A DNA stretch of 47,084 nt. It comes from Flavobacteriales bacterium. GTDB lineage: Bacteria > Bacteroidota > Bacteroidia > Flavobacteriales_C > GCA-002722245. A program made the position numbers and the translations under genes. A model generated the notes under the pieces. That model ran no database searches. It saw only the letters and a list, made by a program, of their open reading frames with translations, and was not told the origin of the DNA. Location of the stretch: the NCBI GenBank assembly GCA_029251005.1, contig JAQXEE010000074.1:1-47084 (forward strand). The letters run 5' to 3'. Of the stretch, positions 40,982-47,084 are shown in pieces (position 1 is the stretch's first letter; each line of letters starts with the position of its first letter).

Positions 40982-41725
40982 ATGTCTATTTTTGACCACT
41001 TAGGTAAATATTATATATTAATGTCTCAAGCTTTCGCAAAGCCTGACAAGTTTAAAGTGGTTTGGAAAAGAGTAATTGATGAAATGGAGTCTATAGGTTT
41101 AGGTTCATTGCCAATTGTTGGGATTTTGTCAATTTTTATGGGAGCTGTTACTCTTCTTCAAATGGCTTATAATTTCAGTAATCCACTAGTCCCTGTTTAT
41201 ACAGAAGGATTAGCAACAAGAGATACAATGATTCTGGAGTTTGCACCAACTATTATTTCACTTATTTTAGCGGGTAAAGTAGGGAGTTCTATTGCAGGTA
41301 ATTTAGGAACAATGAAAGTAACAGAGCAAATCGATGCTTTGGAAATCATGGGAGTTAATCCTAAGAGTTACTTAATCATGCCAAAGGTTGTTGCTGCGTT
41401 ATTTGTTTTTCCGTTTATTGTTATTGTTTCTATTTTTTTAGGAGTTACTGGTGGTTATATCGCTTCATTATTAACAGGAACGGTTTCCATTGAGAATTAC
41501 GTTTTTGGAATAAAATTTGATTTTGAACCTTTTTATATTACTTACGCTTTAATTAAAGCTGAGTTTTTCGCCTTAATTATTACTTCAATTGCTTCTTACC
41601 AAGGCTTTTTAACCTCTGGTGGGGCTAAAGAAGTAGGAGATAGTGGTACAAGAGCTGTTGTTTATAGTTGTATAATAATATTATTGTTTGATCTTATTTT
41701 AACTCAATTACTTTTAACTGTTTAA
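40982..41725 (+). CDS. mlaE: MlaE family ABC transporter permease (lipid transport)
   Basis: A 247-residue inner-membrane permease of the MlaE/YrbE type that moves phospholipids between inner and outer membrane. Visible features are the N-terminal amphipathic stretch, V-G-I-L-S-I-F-M-G-A-V-T-L-L-Q, the conserved E-F-A-P-T-I-I-S-L-I-L-A-G-K-V-G-S-S-I-A-G-N-L-G-T-M-K-V-T-E-Q-I-D-A-L region, and I-K-A-E-F-F-A-L-I-I-T near the end. About five helices. mlaF follows one base after the stop. The MCE substrate-binding subunit (MlaD) is not adjacent in this window. Confidence 0.92.
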   Translation: MSIFDHLGKYYILMSQAFAKPDKFKVVWKRVIDEMESIGLGSLPIVGILSIFMGAVTLLQMAYNFSNPLVPVYTEGLATRDTMILEFAPTIISLILAGKVGSSIAGNLGTMKVTEQIDALEIMGVNPKSYLIMPKVVAALFVFPFIVIVSIFLGVTGGYIASLLTGTVSIENYVFGIKFDFEPFYITYALIKAEFFALIITSIASYQGFLTSGGAKEVGDSGTRAVVYSCIIILLFDLILTQLLLTV

Positions 41726-41726
41726 A

Positions 41727-42491
41727 ATGATTGCAGTAAAAAACATATCAAAATCCTTTGGAACAAAAAATGTTCTGCAAGATATTAACCTCACACTTCA
41801 AAGAGGAAAGGTTAATATGATTATTGGTAAAAGTGGTGCTGGTAAATCTGTACTATTAAAATGTCTAGTAGGATTATTTGACATAGATGCGGGTTCTATT
41901 TTATATGATGAACGTCAGTTCTCTAAAATGGGTTATCAAGCAAAAAAGAAGGTAAGGCAAGAAGTTGGAATGTTGTTTCAAGGTTCTGCTTTATTCGATT
42001 CTAAATCGGTTATTGAGAACGTTATGTTTCCATTAACCATCTTTTCTGATAAATCGACAGAAGAGATTAAAGAGAGAGCAATATTTTGTTTAAGGCGTGT
42101 TAAAATAGATGAGACTGCCGATGATTCATTTCCGGCTGAAATATCGGGTGGAATGCAAAAACGTGTCGCAATTGCACGCGCAATTGCTTTACAGCCTAGG
42201 TATTTGTTTTGTGATGAGCCAAACTCTGGCTTAGATCCGCAAACATCTATTATTATTGATAATTTGATTAGAGAAATTACGGAGGAATTTGACATTACAA
42301 CGATTGTTATATCGCACGATATGAACAGTGTAATGGAAATTTCGGATACTATCTCATTTATCCATCAAGGACAAAAGTGGTGGGAAGGTTCTCGAGATGA
42401 TATTATGAATACAGAAAATCAAGAAGTTGTCGATTTCGTATATGCTTCCAATTTTATGAAGGCACTAAGAGCTTCATTCATAAAAAAATAA
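41727..42491 (+). CDS. mlaF: MlaF family ABC transporter ATPase
   Basis: A 254-residue ATPase driving the MlaE permease. It contains Walker A G-K-S-G-A-G-K-S, the Q-loop (G-M-L-F-Q-G-S-A-L-F-D-S, typical of the Mla group), the signature I-S-G-G-M-Q-K-R-V, Walker B Y-L-F-C-D-E-P-N-S-G-L-D-P, and H-loop V-I-S-H-D. The arrangement with mlaE (1-base gap) marks one transcription unit. Confidence 0.94.
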   Translation: MIAVKNISKSFGTKNVLQDINLTLQRGKVNMIIGKSGAGKSVLLKCLVGLFDIDAGSILYDERQFSKMGYQAKKKVRQEVGMLFQGSALFDSKSVIENVMFPLTIFSDKSTEEIKERAIFCLRRVKIDETADDSFPAEISGGMQKRVAIARAIALQPRYLFCDEPNSGLDPQTSIIIDNLIREITEEFDITTIVISHDMNSVMEISDTISFIHQGQKWWEGSRDDIMNTENQEVVDFVYASNFMKALRASFIKK

Positions 42492-42500
42492 TTTCACTAA

Positions 42501-42532
42501 AAGAAAAACGCCCTCAATCCTAGATTGAGGGC
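42501..42532 (-). terminator. intrinsic terminator for the minus-strand TerB-like gene
   Basis: A 10-bp perfect stem GCCCTCAATC / GATTGAGGGC with a 3-base loop. On the minus strand it is followed by G and TTTTTCTTTT, making it the terminator of the minus-strand unit; on the plus strand there is no T tail, though it lies just after mlaF and could still limit convergent transcription. Confidence 0.85.
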
Positions 42533-42540
42533 AGTTGAAC

Positions 42541-42939
42541 TTAATCTTGTTCCATAACTTCTTTGAAGTGATTTAATTCAATAACACTTCTTAGATGCCC
42601 TTTCATGTAAGTCACCATTTTTTCAACTTGAGCATTTGAGAAACCAATTCTTAAACCAATTTCTTTACAAAGTTTGATTTCTTCCTCATCGGCAACCATA
42701 TCCATTTTCATTACCTGTAGCGTTTGCCAAAAGTAAAAAACTTTGTTTTCTTCCTTTGGTGCTGTAAATGGAATTTTATCTAAATTATCGATAACGTATT
42801 TAAATTCCTGTGGAGTAATTCCTAGTTTAGCAACGATTAATTTGATGAACATGTCTTCAAAATAATTCACGTTTCCGTCCGAACTTGCCATTTTAATAAG
42901 GTTGGCAACTTGGCTACTCTTTTCGTCTAATCCTAACAT
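42541..42939 (-). CDS. TerB-like protein
   Basis: A 132-residue helical protein of the TerB (tellurite resistance B-like) type. Two acidic, metal-binding-like elements typical of the fold can be seen: S-S-D-G-N-V-N-Y-F-E-D near residue 20 and V-A-D-E-E-E-I-K-L-C-K-E around residue 80, each followed by a helix. TerB-like domains are thought to act in metal-linked stress signalling. Some relatives are misnamed as excinuclease ABC subunit B. It follows the giant ATPase after 35 bases and is probably its partner. Confidence 0.75.
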   Translation of the reverse strand: MLGLDEKSSQVANLIKMASSDGNVNYFEDMFIKLIVAKLGITPQEFKYVIDNLDKIPFTAPKEENKVFYFWQTLQVMKMDMVADEEEIKLCKEIGLRIGFSNAQVEKMVTYMKGHLRSVIELNHFKEVMEQD

Positions 42940-42974
42940 AATAATAGTCGTTTATATATTGATTTTAATTGATT

Positions 42975-45900
42975 CTAGTTTTTTCCTAATTCGTCTTTAA
43001 TTCCAAATATCCCTTGGGTAAGTAACTCTACTTTTTCAAGTAAAGTTCCCATTTGCTGGTTGGCCCCAAAGCCTTTCATTTTTTGTTGCTTTCGGTAAAC
43101 AGCAAGTATGTCTTCCCAGCGATGATTTTCTTCTTCTTTTCTCCATCCAGTCAATCCTTTAAATTTTAATAAGTTAGATTCTGCACTTGTAGTTAAAGTC
43201 TGACTTTCGTTTTCGTAATAACTTAACATCAATGTTTTAAGCTCATCGTTATTCATAATAGCGATGATTTTCTCGGCTATTCTGTTCATGTTTCGATACG
43301 AGCCTTGTAGCTTAAATGGAGGCTCATTTCTATACTGATCATCCATTGCTGCTGATTTAATGTACTCTTTGTTAACATCAAGAATAATCTTTCTTACTGC
43401 AATTATTTTTTCAAGAACACTAACATAATCTTTAATTTCTTCCGTAGTGTGGTTTGATTCAAATTCGATTCCTTCTGCCGAACCTGATTGGGCTATTTTA
43501 ACTAAGCTATATAAGTCGTTTTGAGACTTACCAACTAGGTTTCTAAGGATTACGTTAGATGTTAATGAATTCTCAATGTAACTCATTTCAAATACGTCCG
43601 CTTGATCTCCAATTATATCTCCAAGGTTATAAATGTCTGCCCTATTAGAAAGCATATCTGGTATTTGGAATTTATCTCCACTTTCGGTGAATGGATTTCC
43701 TGCCATTACAACACAAACCTTCTTTCCTCTAAGATCATAAGTTTTAGATTTTCCTTTATAAACTCCTTCAATTTTTCGTTGAGCATCACAAAGCGAAATG
43801 AATTTTTGAAGAAATTCAGGATTACAATGCTGAATATCATCTAGGTAAATCATCACATTGTCACCCATTTCTAATCCAAGATTTAGTTTTTCAACCTCTT
43901 CTTTAGCACTCATATTGGGTGCGTCTTCAGGATCTAGCGAAACAACATCATGCCCCAATGCAGGTCCGTTAATTTTTAAGAACACAACACCTAACCTACT
44001 GGCAATATATTCCATAAGGGTAGTTTTACCGTACCCAGGAGGAGATATTAAAAGAAGCATTCCCATTAAATCAGTTCTCTTATTTTCACCAGCCGAACCA
44101 ATTTGCTTGGCTAGGTTATCTCCGATTAATGGCAGGTAAACTTGATTGATGAGCTTGTTTCGAACAAAAGAAGACATTACTCTAGGTTTTAATTCGTCGA
44201 GTTTTAATTCGTCTTTAAAAGAGTTTATGAGTTCTTTTTTTAAATCGGTATATTTTTCAAATAATGGAACTGATGTATTACAATAGTGTTCCATTTTTTT
44301 TGAGAACGAGTGATAGCTTAAAGTGTATTTTCCTTTTTTGATTAAATTATGATCGCCAACTAAGGCTTCTAATTCTATGTTTAGAGAAAAGTTAATAAGG
44401 TTTATTCTACTTTTTTCAAGCATATAAAATGCTGCTGTTTCATCAATAAATTGAGAAAGATTATTCTCAAAAGTTTCTGTAAAAGCGGTTAACCAACTTA
44501 CTATTAATTTGTATTTTGAAAAAGGATCTTCAATCTGATTAGAAGATTTTTCAAATTGTACAGTTAGTTTGTTGTCTTTTAAGTATTTATTGAATTTATC
44601 ACCTAATTCAAAAGCCTCCTTTCCAATCGAAAAATTATCTTTTGAATCTAATTCTTCAATTAAGTATTTAGCACAAATAACGGCGTTGATTTCAAGTTTG
44701 TTTTTTGAAATGAAAGGGCGAAGCAATTGCACTAAATCTTCTTCTAAATTTGCTGTTTCATTCGTATTAGGGAAAGCTTGCTTTAAAACTCCTACAGCAT
44801 TAATTCTTTTTTGAATGATGCTTTTATCGTCTGCACTAATTTCAAATAACCAAGCGAAAATAGAGCATGACCGAATTGTAGGGTTATATTTTAAAACACC
44901 ACCGTTTAAATGCATTTCCATTACCTTTTTTAAGATAATAGCAGCATCTTTATCATGAATACCTTTAGAGTAACTTTCTTGGTATCGATTACCCATAAAA
45001 CTTGCCACATAATCAATTAGTTCCTTTTGAGAAAAGTTGATTATTTCGTGTTGATTTTTAGGTGATTGATTTTTTAGTGTCGAGAATAATAACCAGGCTA
45101 AATATTCACTTTTATATACTTGATTGGATTCGGAAACTACAGATTGACTCCAGACAGGAGTAGTGGTCATGAGTTCTTCGTCGTTTATTTTTTGGAAAAA
45201 GTTGGTGCCTGTAATATGGTAGTACTGTCCATCTTCTTTTGGAACAATGGTTAAATCTATATTTTGTTTATTCACTAGGAATTTATGTTTTCCAAGTGAA
45301 ATTACGTTCTCACTCTCGAATAATTCATTCTTATCCTTAAGTTGTCTTAACGCGTCTTCTTTAATTCTTTTAATGGAACTTTGAATCTCATCAGCTTTAA
45401 CAGTATCGCCCAATGTAATTAGCTCTTTAATTACATCTCTAACTTTATCCACCATTAAATCGGAAACCATATATCCATTAATCTCATTAACAGATTTCAT
45501 TCCTTTTAATCGATTGGTAATACCCTTTAAAATTCGATCAGCAGAAGATTTTAAGCTTGTTGATTTTTTATTTCTTTTTTCAATTAACTGAACCTTTTTA
45601 GCTTCGAAAGCATTGTATATTTCTTCTCTCTTTGCTGAGATTATTTCGATGAATTCATCAAACTCAGAAAATTTCCCACCTAACTCTTCTAATTGAATCA
45701 TTAGTTTCGAAAGGTATTCTTCACACTTATCAGGTTCGTCACATAAATCGAGATAATTAATTATCCCCTGAGAAATTAACTTGATTTGAGCATTAAACTC
45801 AGCTTTACCTTCATGACTTTGAAGCTCTTTTCTCTTCTTTTTTAGGTTGGCGTTAATTAAGTTGAATTGAGCGTATATTTCAGAAATACTATCAATAATC

Positions 45901-47084
45901 TTAGTAGTTTGAGTTGGATCCTCAATTTTTAAATTACTAACAACATCAATTAACATTTCTAATTCAGAAGAAATCATTTCGATATTTTCTTCTGCAGTAT
46001 TTGCGTCAGTAACCTTTTTTAAATTATCGACTTCAGTTTTTATGTTTTCTACTTTTTTAGCATAGGGTAGGAGTGCTTCTTTTTTAAGTAAAAACTTAAC
46101 ACAATTTTCACTTAAAACATTTCCTAATTTTTCTAGGTTAGCATTGATTTCTTCAATTCTAACAAGATTGATATATCTTTTGTCCTTTAAGGAAATTACG
46201 TTTCCTCTGATGGTTCTTAATTGAACAAGTAATCCAACGAATTTATCAATATTATCATTCGATGAATTATTAATCCCTTTGATTAGCGCTTGATATTCAA
46301 GCTCAACTTCTTCTAATGCTTGTGAGCTTGATAGTTTTATTTTGACAACCTTTTCAAATTCTTCGATTGCATTTGTCGAAGATTTTTTGATGTTTAATAA
46401 AGGCGCTTCTAATTCAAATCCTTCCTTTTTATTTAGCCAATAATAAGTGTCTAAAACATCAGTTGTTTTCCGAACAAGATCAACGTATAGATTATCGTAA
46501 GAATCTTCTTTCTCTATTAATTTGATAACCTCTTTACACTCCGACATTGCTCTAACAACTTCCTTATTTCCAACTTTGGTTAGGAAACTATCAGAAGTAT
46601 TTGCAACTAAAGATCCATCATCTAAAAACGGAGTTGTCCATATTTGAATTGAATGATGGGCTTGTACTTCGTTTTCAGATTTAAAAAAACATAGCTCTCC
46701 ATTTTTAAACAAAGAGTAACCATGACAAATAATTGGCTTACCAATCGTTTGCTCAATTAGGTTGTAAGAGAGCAGGAGGTAAACCCCATCTGGCTTATCG
46801 TAAAATATGTAAAGAAAATCCTCTCCATTAGGAGACGCTATCCTTTTTTCGAATAGCATTCGCTCAAGATCAAGGTTGAATAATCTAACCTCTCCCGATT
46901 GTAAATACATTCCTTGTGGGAATATTACACCATGATCATCCGGTAAAAGCGCGCAGCATTGTTCTATTCCATCAACTCTAGTAGCTTGTTTGATTTTATC
47001 GTTATAGATTATGAAACGGGCTTCTTTTTCCTTGTACGGAAGGATTTTTAGGAAGATTAAATTCTCTACGATTGCATAAGAAAT
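42975..47084 (-). CDS. very large DNA-repair-ATPase family AAA protein, partial
   Basis: The open frame continues to the right edge without an in-frame stop, so this is the C-terminal part (at least 1369 residues) of a longer protein; the ATG at 46910 is internal. The N-terminal part visible is the family-specific domain seen in DNA-repair ATPases (DUF3686 type). A long coiled-coil and helical middle follows (Glu/Lys/Leu-rich). The C-terminal third holds a AAA+ module: Walker A L-L-I-S-P-P-G-Y-G-K-T-T-L, Walker B V-M-I-Y-L-D-D-I-Q-H-C, and M-A-G-N-P-F as sensor 1. Despite the family name, its biochemical activity is not established. It is followed by the TerB-like gene. Confidence 0.82.
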   Translation of the reverse strand: MSYAIVENLIFLKILPYKEKEARFIIYNDKIKQATRVDGIEQCCALLPDDHGVIFPQGMYLQSGEVRLFNLDLERMLFEKRIASPNGEDFLYIFYDKPDGVYLLLSYNLIEQTIGKPIICHGYSLFKNGELCFFKSENEVQAHHSIQIWTTPFLDDGSLVANTSDSFLTKVGNKEVVRAMSECKEVIKLIEKEDSYDNLYVDLVRKTTDVLDTYYWLNKKEGFELEAPLLNIKKSSTNAIEEFEKVVKIKLSSSQALEEVELEYQALIKGINNSSNDNIDKFVGLLVQLRTIRGNVISLKDKRYINLVRIEEINANLEKLGNVLSENCVKFLLKKEALLPYAKKVENIKTEVDNLKKVTDANTAEENIEMISSELEMLIDVVSNLKIEDPTQTTKIIDSISEIYAQFNLINANLKKKRKELQSHEGKAEFNAQIKLISQGIINYLDLCDEPDKCEEYLSKLMIQLEELGGKFSEFDEFIEIISAKREEIYNAFEAKKVQLIEKRNKKSTSLKSSADRILKGITNRLKGMKSVNEINGYMVSDLMVDKVRDVIKELITLGDTVKADEIQSSIKRIKEDALRQLKDKNELFESENVISLGKHKFLVNKQNIDLTIVPKEDGQYYHITGTNFFQKINDEELMTTTPVWSQSVVSESNQVYKSEYLAWLLFSTLKNQSPKNQHEIINFSQKELIDYVASFMGNRYQESYSKGIHDKDAAIILKKVMEMHLNGGVLKYNPTIRSCSIFAWLFEISADDKSIIQKRINAVGVLKQAFPNTNETANLEEDLVQLLRPFISKNKLEINAVICAKYLIEELDSKDNFSIGKEAFELGDKFNKYLKDNKLTVQFEKSSNQIEDPFSKYKLIVSWLTAFTETFENNLSQFIDETAAFYMLEKSRINLINFSLNIELEALVGDHNLIKKGKYTLSYHSFSKKMEHYCNTSVPLFEKYTDLKKELINSFKDELKLDELKPRVMSSFVRNKLINQVYLPLIGDNLAKQIGSAGENKRTDLMGMLLLISPPGYGKTTLMEYIASRLGVVFLKINGPALGHDVVSLDPEDAPNMSAKEEVEKLNLGLEMGDNVMIYLDDIQHCNPEFLQKFISLCDAQRKIEGVYKGKSKTYDLRGKKVCVVMAGNPFTESGDKFQIPDMLSNRADIYNLGDIIGDQADVFEMSYIENSLTSNVILRNLVGKSQNDLYSLVKIAQSGSAEGIEFESNHTTEEIKDYVSVLEKIIAVRKIILDVNKEYIKSAAMDDQYRNEPPFKLQGSYRNMNRIAEKIIAIMNNDELKTLMLSYYENESQTLTTSAESNLLKFKGLTGWRKEEENHRWEDILAVYRKQQKMKGFGANQQMGTLLEKVELLTQGIFGIKDELGKN

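What the first reader, a model, noticed from the sequence alone, without database searches (positions are those of the whole stretch)
42541..47084. TerB-like protein next to a giant DNA-repair-family ATPase
A very large AAA protein (beyond 1369 residues) with long coiled coil is followed by a small TerB-like protein with its own terminator. TerB domains occur in ter-type stress systems thought to connect metal sensing with DNA processing, and DNA-repair-family ATPases have been proposed to act in such settings. The gene pair may form an undescribed stress or defence module whose further members lie beyond the right edge.
Basis: partly seen in the sequence, partly recalled or inferred. Interest (0 to 1): 0.6.

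Follow-up and report, generated by a model that had tools for sequence, protein, structure and literature searches.

The report
TerB partner of PspA–flotillin–AAA membrane-stress operon
The two genes are the tail of a known but little-studied bacterial membrane-stress operon (a membrane-repair protein, a membrane scaffold and a giant motor protein), to which some Bacteroidota have repeatedly added a small, probably metal-binding TerB protein; nothing found here supports a DNA-repair or tellurite-resistance system.

Summary
A TerB-domain protein (42541-42939, -) lies 36 bp downstream of a giant AAA+ ATPase (42975 to beyond 47084, -) and is followed by a strong terminator-like hairpin. The next contig overlaps the window's right edge and completes the operon: divergent XRE regulator // CesT/Tir - PspA - YqiJ/NfeD - flotillin - AAA (about 1,626 aa) - TerB.

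The core is already described (Ravi et al. 2024, PMC11237479). "DNA repair ATPase" is only a database label; the genome has no TerC or TerD.

Not found in that paper's main text: (i) TerB as a recurrent partner (after the AAA at 6 of 93 loci, needing at least 3 gains or losses on well-supported branches; also in YqiJ-flotillin-TerB rows without AAA, and once in a divergent XRE-PLD-TerB operon); (ii) a divergent XRE regulator with a non-catalytic S24-like domain, at all 31 CesT-PspA loci and none of 50 without; (iii) a phospholipase-D-like gene near that regulator at several loci.

Best reading: ATP-driven remodelling of a PspA/flotillin membrane assembly, with TerB as a metal-responsive adaptor. 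New variant of a known kind.

The parts
42541..42939 (-). TerB-domain protein, 132 aa, last gene of the operon
   Evidence: Pfam TerB 8e-7; profile matches solved TerB-family structures 2H5N and 2OU3 over both halves (E 0.004); D21, E28, D80, E87 invariant in 8 operonic copies
42975..47084 (-). C-terminal 1369 residues of the giant AAA+ ATPase (start lies on contig C157)
   Evidence: DUF3686, DUF7902 and AAA matches; continuation on C157
46440..47084 (-). C-terminal half of the DUF3686 region (predicted beta-propeller and start of helical region)
   Evidence: Pfam DUF3686 6e-84; model of a relative's N-terminus, pLDDT 87.7, Foldseek hits dominated by beta-propellers
45825..46079 (-). DUF7902 part of the region between propeller and AAA domain
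   Evidence: Pfam DUF7902 2e-26
43686..44057 (-). AAA+ ATPase domain
   Evidence: Pfam AAA/AAA_5; model pLDDT 78.5, nearest folds RuvB and NorQ/CbbQ (MoxR)
44019..44045 (-). Walker A (SPPGYGKTT)
   Evidence: invariant in 55 homologues
43827..43847 (-). Walker B (YLDDIQH); a predicted beta-hairpin lies between it and sensor 1
   Evidence: Y, both D, I, Q and H invariant in 55 homologues; strands 235-240 and 243-248 of the model
43692..43703 (-). sensor 1 (AGNP); candidate arginine finger at 43641-43643
   Evidence: AGNP and the arginine invariant in 55 homologues
42509..42533 (-). intrinsic terminator-like hairpin closing the operon
   Evidence: 1 found, 0.5 expected in shuffles; 11 bp stem plus T tail

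Best explanation
The pair is the 3' end of a membrane-stress operon: divergent XRE regulator // CesT/Tir-like chaperone - PspA - YqiJ/NfeD - flotillin (SPFH) - giant propeller/coiled-coil AAA+ ATPase - TerB. Proposed working: YqiJ and flotillin form an inner-membrane scaffold; PspA polymerises on damaged membrane with the CesT-like protein as its chaperone or regulator; the AAA+ protein docks through its propeller and coiled coil and uses ATP to disassemble or remodel the assembly, in the way Vps4 acts on ESCRT-III; TerB is an optional adaptor on the scaffold/ATPase side that ties its activity to bound divalent metal; the XRE protein, whose relatives have an S24-like C-terminal domain without the catalytic Ser and Lys, does not work by LexA-type self-cleavage. 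Shown here: gene order, families, conserved ATPase motifs, recurrence of TerB, the XRE association. Inferred: physical interactions, remodelling, metal binding, stress trigger.
For: Operon on C157 with gaps of -4, 6, 19 and 109 bp and families CesT_Tir_1 1e-54 and PspA_IM30 8e-20; YqiJ_N only weak (4e-3). Flotillin and YqiJ genes accompany the AAA at most loci, in several phyla. CesT, PspA and XRE occur together at 31 loci; XRE is absent from all 50 loci without CesT/PspA. TerB directly after the AAA at 6 of 93 loci, at least 3 gains or losses on starred branches; in G306 TerB sits in the divergent XRE-PLD-TerB operon beside cesT-pspA-yqiJ-flotillin; in G062 and G130 it directly follows a Band_7 protein (1.6e-28, tested in G062) without any AAA, which points to the flotillin side. 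ATPase motifs invariant. Published: Ravi et al. interpret the core as ESCRT-like membrane remodelling; in P. aeruginosa the related bacABCDEF operon is co-transcribed and loss of BacA (CesT fold) raises its partners; loss of the S. oneidensis YqiK homologue alters iron metabolism and peroxide sensitivity.
Against: No experiment on this operon or the DUF3686 ATPase was found. Most loci lack TerB, and more than half lack PspA, so PspA cannot be the only substrate. The AAA fold is nearer RuvB/NorQ than Vps4, with a hairpin before sensor 1 that classical AAA proteins such as Vps4 lack (general knowledge). The flotillin of the window's genome matches no Pfam model by itself; its identity rests on weak matches of homologues, gene context and reading of the sequence. 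Metal binding by TerB is inferred from residue conservation.
Confidence: 0.6

Rival explanations
1. A TerB-ATPase anti-phage module, comparable to Shango (TerB-like protein, ATPase, DEAD/DEAH helicase) or linked to Mokosh-like helicase/PLD systems, in which the PspA/flotillin part senses phage damage to the membrane.
For: TerB plus ATPase plus helicase is Shango. In G306 TerB lies between a PLD protein and a Mokosh-like SF1 helicase. The operon is patchy: 17 of 395 class genomes, 2 of 5 genus members, and different flanks in G000 and G004.
Against: No helicase in the window operon; flanks are nrdAB, an MlaE-type transporter, a cysteine desulfurase, ispG, dinB and dnaE, not a defence island. 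PADLOC finds no system component beyond generic P-loop/HTH matches. No phage record and only 12 plasmid records carry the ATPase.
Confidence: 0.13
2. A ter-type stress system: TerB acts with other Ter proteins in metal sensing and DNA processing, with the AAA protein as a DNA-repair ATPase.
For: TerB domain; Pfam and NCBI label the ATPase 'DNA repair'; RuvB among the nearest AAA folds; dinB lies about 5 kb beyond the operon's first gene.
Against: No TerD or TerC in the genome. The partners are membrane proteins. The RuvB likeness is confined to the AAA domain and shared with NorQ/CbbQ. The XRE regulators lack the S24 catalytic Ser and Lys, so LexA-like SOS cleavage is unlikely.
Confidence: 0.05
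3. TerB is a passenger: a common small TerB gene that landed behind the operon and has no functional tie to it.
For: Small TerB genes are common in the class (87 of 395 genomes), and most DUF3686 loci lack one.
Against: Repeated, oriented, close adjacency (0 to 174 bp) at several independent places in the tree, tandem copies in two genomes, and placement next to PspA/flotillin genes in other arrangements; chance expectation about 0.01 loci (own estimate).
Confidence: 0.2

Closest known systems
CesT/Tir-PspA - band-7/flotillin - YqiJ - propeller/coiled-coil AAA+ operon (Ravi et al. 2024, mSystems, PMC11237479)
   Same: Same five gene families and the same AAA architecture.
   Different: TerB as last gene, the conserved divergent XRE regulator and the Bacteroidota PLD partner are not in that paper's main text (TerB and XRE: 0 occurrences; PLD is mentioned only for some Proteobacteria). 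Supplements and web app were not read.
Pseudomonas aeruginosa bacABCDEF operon (PMC10948618)
   Same: CesT-fold BacA and PspA-family BacB, an NfeD and an SPFH gene, in one transcript.
   Different: YjfI-type (DUF2170) CesT; no DUF3686 ATPase or TerB reported; sigma-54 promoter proposed instead of an XRE regulator.
Shango anti-phage system (PMC10250203)
   Same: TerB-like protein plus an ATPase.
   Different: Shango has a DEAD/DEAH helicase and lies in defence islands; here the partners are PspA, flotillin, YqiJ and CesT.
Ter (tellurite-resistance) systems
   Same: A TerB domain.
   Different: No TerC or TerD in the genome.
ESCRT-III/Vps4 and SPFH-AAA (HflKC-FtsH) pairs
   Same: Membrane polymer or SPFH scaffold working with an AAA ATPase (by analogy).
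   Different: The AAA domain is RuvB/MoxR-like in fold comparison, with a propeller/coiled-coil N-terminus and no protease domain found.

Membership tests
CesT/Tir-PspA/band-7/YqiJ/AAA+ operon class (Ravi 2024) | CesT/Tir-like gene next to pspA | tested here: met
   CesT_Tir_1 1.4e-54 and PspA_IM30 8e-20, genes overlapping by 4 bp
[quoted passage not shown]
   723 aa with N-terminal hydrophobic stretch and long coiled coil; no Pfam hit, a homologue matches FloT only at 0.04; a more distant protein in the same position (L180) is Band_7 1.6e-28
CesT/Tir-PspA/band-7/YqiJ/AAA+ operon class (Ravi 2024) | YqiJ/YuaF-type membrane protein | tested here: inconclusive
   YqiJ_N 0.004, below cut-off; conserved gene at the same position in most loci
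CesT/Tir-PspA/band-7/YqiJ/AAA+ operon class (Ravi 2024) | AAA+ with N-terminal beta-propeller and coiled coil | tested here: met
   model of a relative's N-terminus pLDDT 87.7, Foldseek hits dominated by propellers; long helices follow
TerB family | PF05099 match above cut-off and paired acidic motifs | tested here: met
   29.8 bits vs 24.4; D..E pairs invariant in operonic copies and aligned to D/E of 2H5N and 2OU3
Ter stress system | TerC and TerD encoded with TerB | tested here: not met
   no match in the whole genome; control genomes ring
Shango | TerB-like + ATPase + DEAD/DEAH helicase | tested here: not met
   TerB and an ATPase present, no helicase among the neighbours on either side
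DNA-repair ATPase | role in DNA repair | not testable with these tools
   label only; context is membrane stress
classical AAA (Vps4-like) | classical-clade AAA domain without hairpin before sensor 1 | tested here: inconclusive
   PF00004 matches, but the model has a hairpin between Walker B and sensor 1 and nearest folds are RuvB/NorQ; Vps4 ranks 40th
LexA/CI-type S24 repressor (the XRE gene) | catalytic Ser and Lys for autocleavage | tested here: not met
   Ser position E/A/D and Lys position R or other in the aligned regulators; alignment judged by eye

The most novel reading that the evidence does not exclude
TerB and PLD proteins are exchangeable modules that couple PspA/flotillin membrane surveillance to Ter- and Mokosh/Shango-like anti-phage effectors, so this operon would be a phage-responsive membrane defence system.
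Probability: 0.1. Interest if true: 0.75.

Novelty: new variant of a known kind. Interest (0 to 1): 0.38.

Why it matters
If the reading holds, it gives a widespread, probably mislabelled family ('DNA repair ATPase', DUF3686) a testable role as the motor of a PspA/flotillin membrane-repair machine, and gives TerB domains, whose job outside tellurite resistance is unclear, a recurrent partner that can be tested biochemically.

Tried and rejected
PADLOC search of all operon proteins: only generic P-loop and HTH matches. Phage collection: no match; plasmids: 12 records, several of them very large replicons. DUF3686 and 'DNA repair ATPase' + flotillin in the held literature: no paper. Second copy of the operon as explanation of the 95% identical C157 overlap: rejected, only one N- and one C-terminal half in the genome and mostly synonymous differences. 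L071 TerB: some genes away on the other strand, lacks the second D, counted as chance. Solved relatives of the flotillin profile: none. The LexA-like SOS idea for the XRE regulator was dropped after the catalytic residues were found missing.

Full report
Observation. The window ends inside the large gene. On the minus strand TerB (42541-42939) follows the ATPase (42975 to the edge) after 36 bp, and a hairpin with a T tail follows at 42533-42509. Convergent to it lie a permease and an ABC ATPase gene (40982-42491; the permease matches the MlaE family, the ATPase matches many ABC models, MlaF among them), before that nrdB/nrdA. Pfam gives TerB 8e-7 for the small protein, and DUF3686, DUF7902 and AAA for the large one.

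Beyond the edge. The window is the whole of contig C75. Contig C157 overlaps its end by 778 bp at 95% identity and carries the ATPase's N-terminus; no further copy of either half exists in the genome. Differences in the overlap are mainly third-position and synonymous (34 of 41 changed codons), so the break looks like strain variation within one locus. C157 then reads, in the same direction and going upstream: flotillin-like 723 aa, YqiJ-like 229 aa, PspA 237 aa, CesT/Tir-like 131 aa; divergent to these an XRE regulator of 220 aa; then a cysteine desulfurase, ispG, dinB and a DNA polymerase III alpha-like gene. Gaps within the operon are -4, 6, 19 and 109 bp; XRE-cesT intergenic DNA is 207 bp.

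Distribution. DUF3686 occurs in 17 of 395 genomes of the class, in 2 of 5 of the genus and in none of 5 of the sister genus. A scan of species genomes returned 80 loci (more exist) from Bacteroidota, Planctomycetota, Verrucomicrobiota, Thermodesulfobacteriota, Calditrichota and Cloacimonadota. Neighbourhood analysis of these and the class loci: 82 loci contain the flotillin; 31 of them have cesT, pspA and XRE together, 50 have none of the three, one has pspA alone. TerB follows the ATPase directly in the window, L015 (same genus), L047 and L053 (two tandem copies each), L075 and L131. On a tree of 93 ATPase domains the TerB label needs 4 changes, at least 3 on starred branches; the largest cluster (window, L015, L047, L053, with L054 lacking TerB) has as sister the ATPase of G306, whose TerB lies in the divergent operon XRE - PLD - TerB - SF1 helicase beside cesT-pspA-yqiJ-flotillin. 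A profile search of TerB in 395 genomes found 87 carrier genomes and about 137 hits, of the order of 1e-4 per gene (own estimate), so 6 adjacent loci are far beyond chance. Looking at the surroundings of about 80 of these hits gave two further cases: YqiJ-like, Band_7 protein and TerB in a row without ATPase in G062 and G130.

Proteins. Operonic TerB copies share 26-38% identity with the window's outside the genus but keep D21, E28, D80, E87 (window numbering), and these align with D and E residues of the solved TerB-family proteins 2H5N and 2OU3; a metal site is therefore likely but untested. The ATPase model (window's own C-terminal 500 aa, 55 sequences, pLDDT 78.5) has Walker A, Walker B, sensor 1 and a candidate arginine finger invariant, with a beta-hairpin between Walker B and sensor 1. 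Nearest folds are RuvB and the MoxR-type NorQ and CbbQ, with low TM-scores; this does not make it a DNA enzyme. The N-terminal 560 aa of a relative (pLDDT 87.7) are a propeller followed by long helices, in agreement with Ravi et al.

Regulator. The 32 aligned XRE proteins share a nearly constant helix-turn-helix. In most the C-terminal region looks like the S24 fold (Peptidase_S24 6e-7 in L165), but the catalytic Ser position is E, A or D and the Lys position mostly R. The window genome's own copy has a diverged C-terminus. XRE-cesT intergenic regions carry an inverted repeat like GCTCAAA-n-TTTGAGC; the 8-mer GCTCAAAA occurs in 17 of 31, against at most 8 for any 8-mer in a shuffle (related species inflate this). 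A PLD-like gene adjoins the XRE gene in L047, L058, L070, L073, L074, L131 and L165, lies close to it in L068, L069 and L091, and is near the operon's start in several Planctomycetota (L078, L080-L082, L086); the window's genome has a PLD homologue elsewhere (C7).

Known and new. Ravi et al. 2024 describe the core operon and propose ESCRT-like membrane remodelling; their main text does not contain TerB or XRE (supplements not read). Related experiments: the bac operon of P. aeruginosa and the YqiK homologue of S. oneidensis. Shango shows that TerB plus an ATPase can be part of an anti-phage system, but its helicase is missing here. No TerC or TerD occurs in this genome.

Conclusion. The finding is real and its neighbours were correctly predicted; the system is a variant of a described membrane-stress operon. 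TerB, the XRE regulator and the Bacteroidota PLD gene are additions that I did not find described. Mechanism beyond gene content is inference.

Noticed in passing
L166:2353-10149 (genome G326): A 1381-aa DUF4011/SF1 helicase with C-terminal MTES_1575 nuclease (PADLOC PDC-S37 3e-184, Hhe 2e-89) is followed by a TerB protein and a 1030-aa DUF7932 protein: a possible TerB-containing defence locus.
   Followed up: partly
L180:4649-7264 and L191:3779-6313 (genomes G062, G130): YqiJ-like, Band_7 and TerB genes in a row, without any AAA ATPase.
   Followed up: partly
L165:4190-12411 (genome G306): XRE - PLD - TerB - Mokosh-like SF1 helicase genes, divergent from cesT-pspA-yqiJ-flotillin.
   Followed up: partly
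L244 (plasmid pQBR103): The flotillin-ATPase pair directly follows DUF2491, DUF350, DUF1190 and glutathionylspermidine synthase genes, joining two of the operon groups of Ravi et al. on one plasmid.
   Followed up: no
L246 (Streptomyces plasmid): A TerD family gene lies about 4 kb downstream of the flotillin-ATPase pair, on the other strand.
   Followed up: no
window 46307-47084 and C157 1-778: Contig ends overlap at 95% identity with mostly synonymous differences: the genome seems to mix two strain variants here.
   Followed up: yes
L015:13318-15518 (genome G004): Next to TerB lie genes that read like a peptide-release-factor homologue and RtcB (RNA repair), by reading of the sequence only.
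   Followed up: no
L053:15488-15952, L047:5133-5612: Tandem TerB copies behind the ATPase, the second with a C-terminal extension.
   Followed up: no
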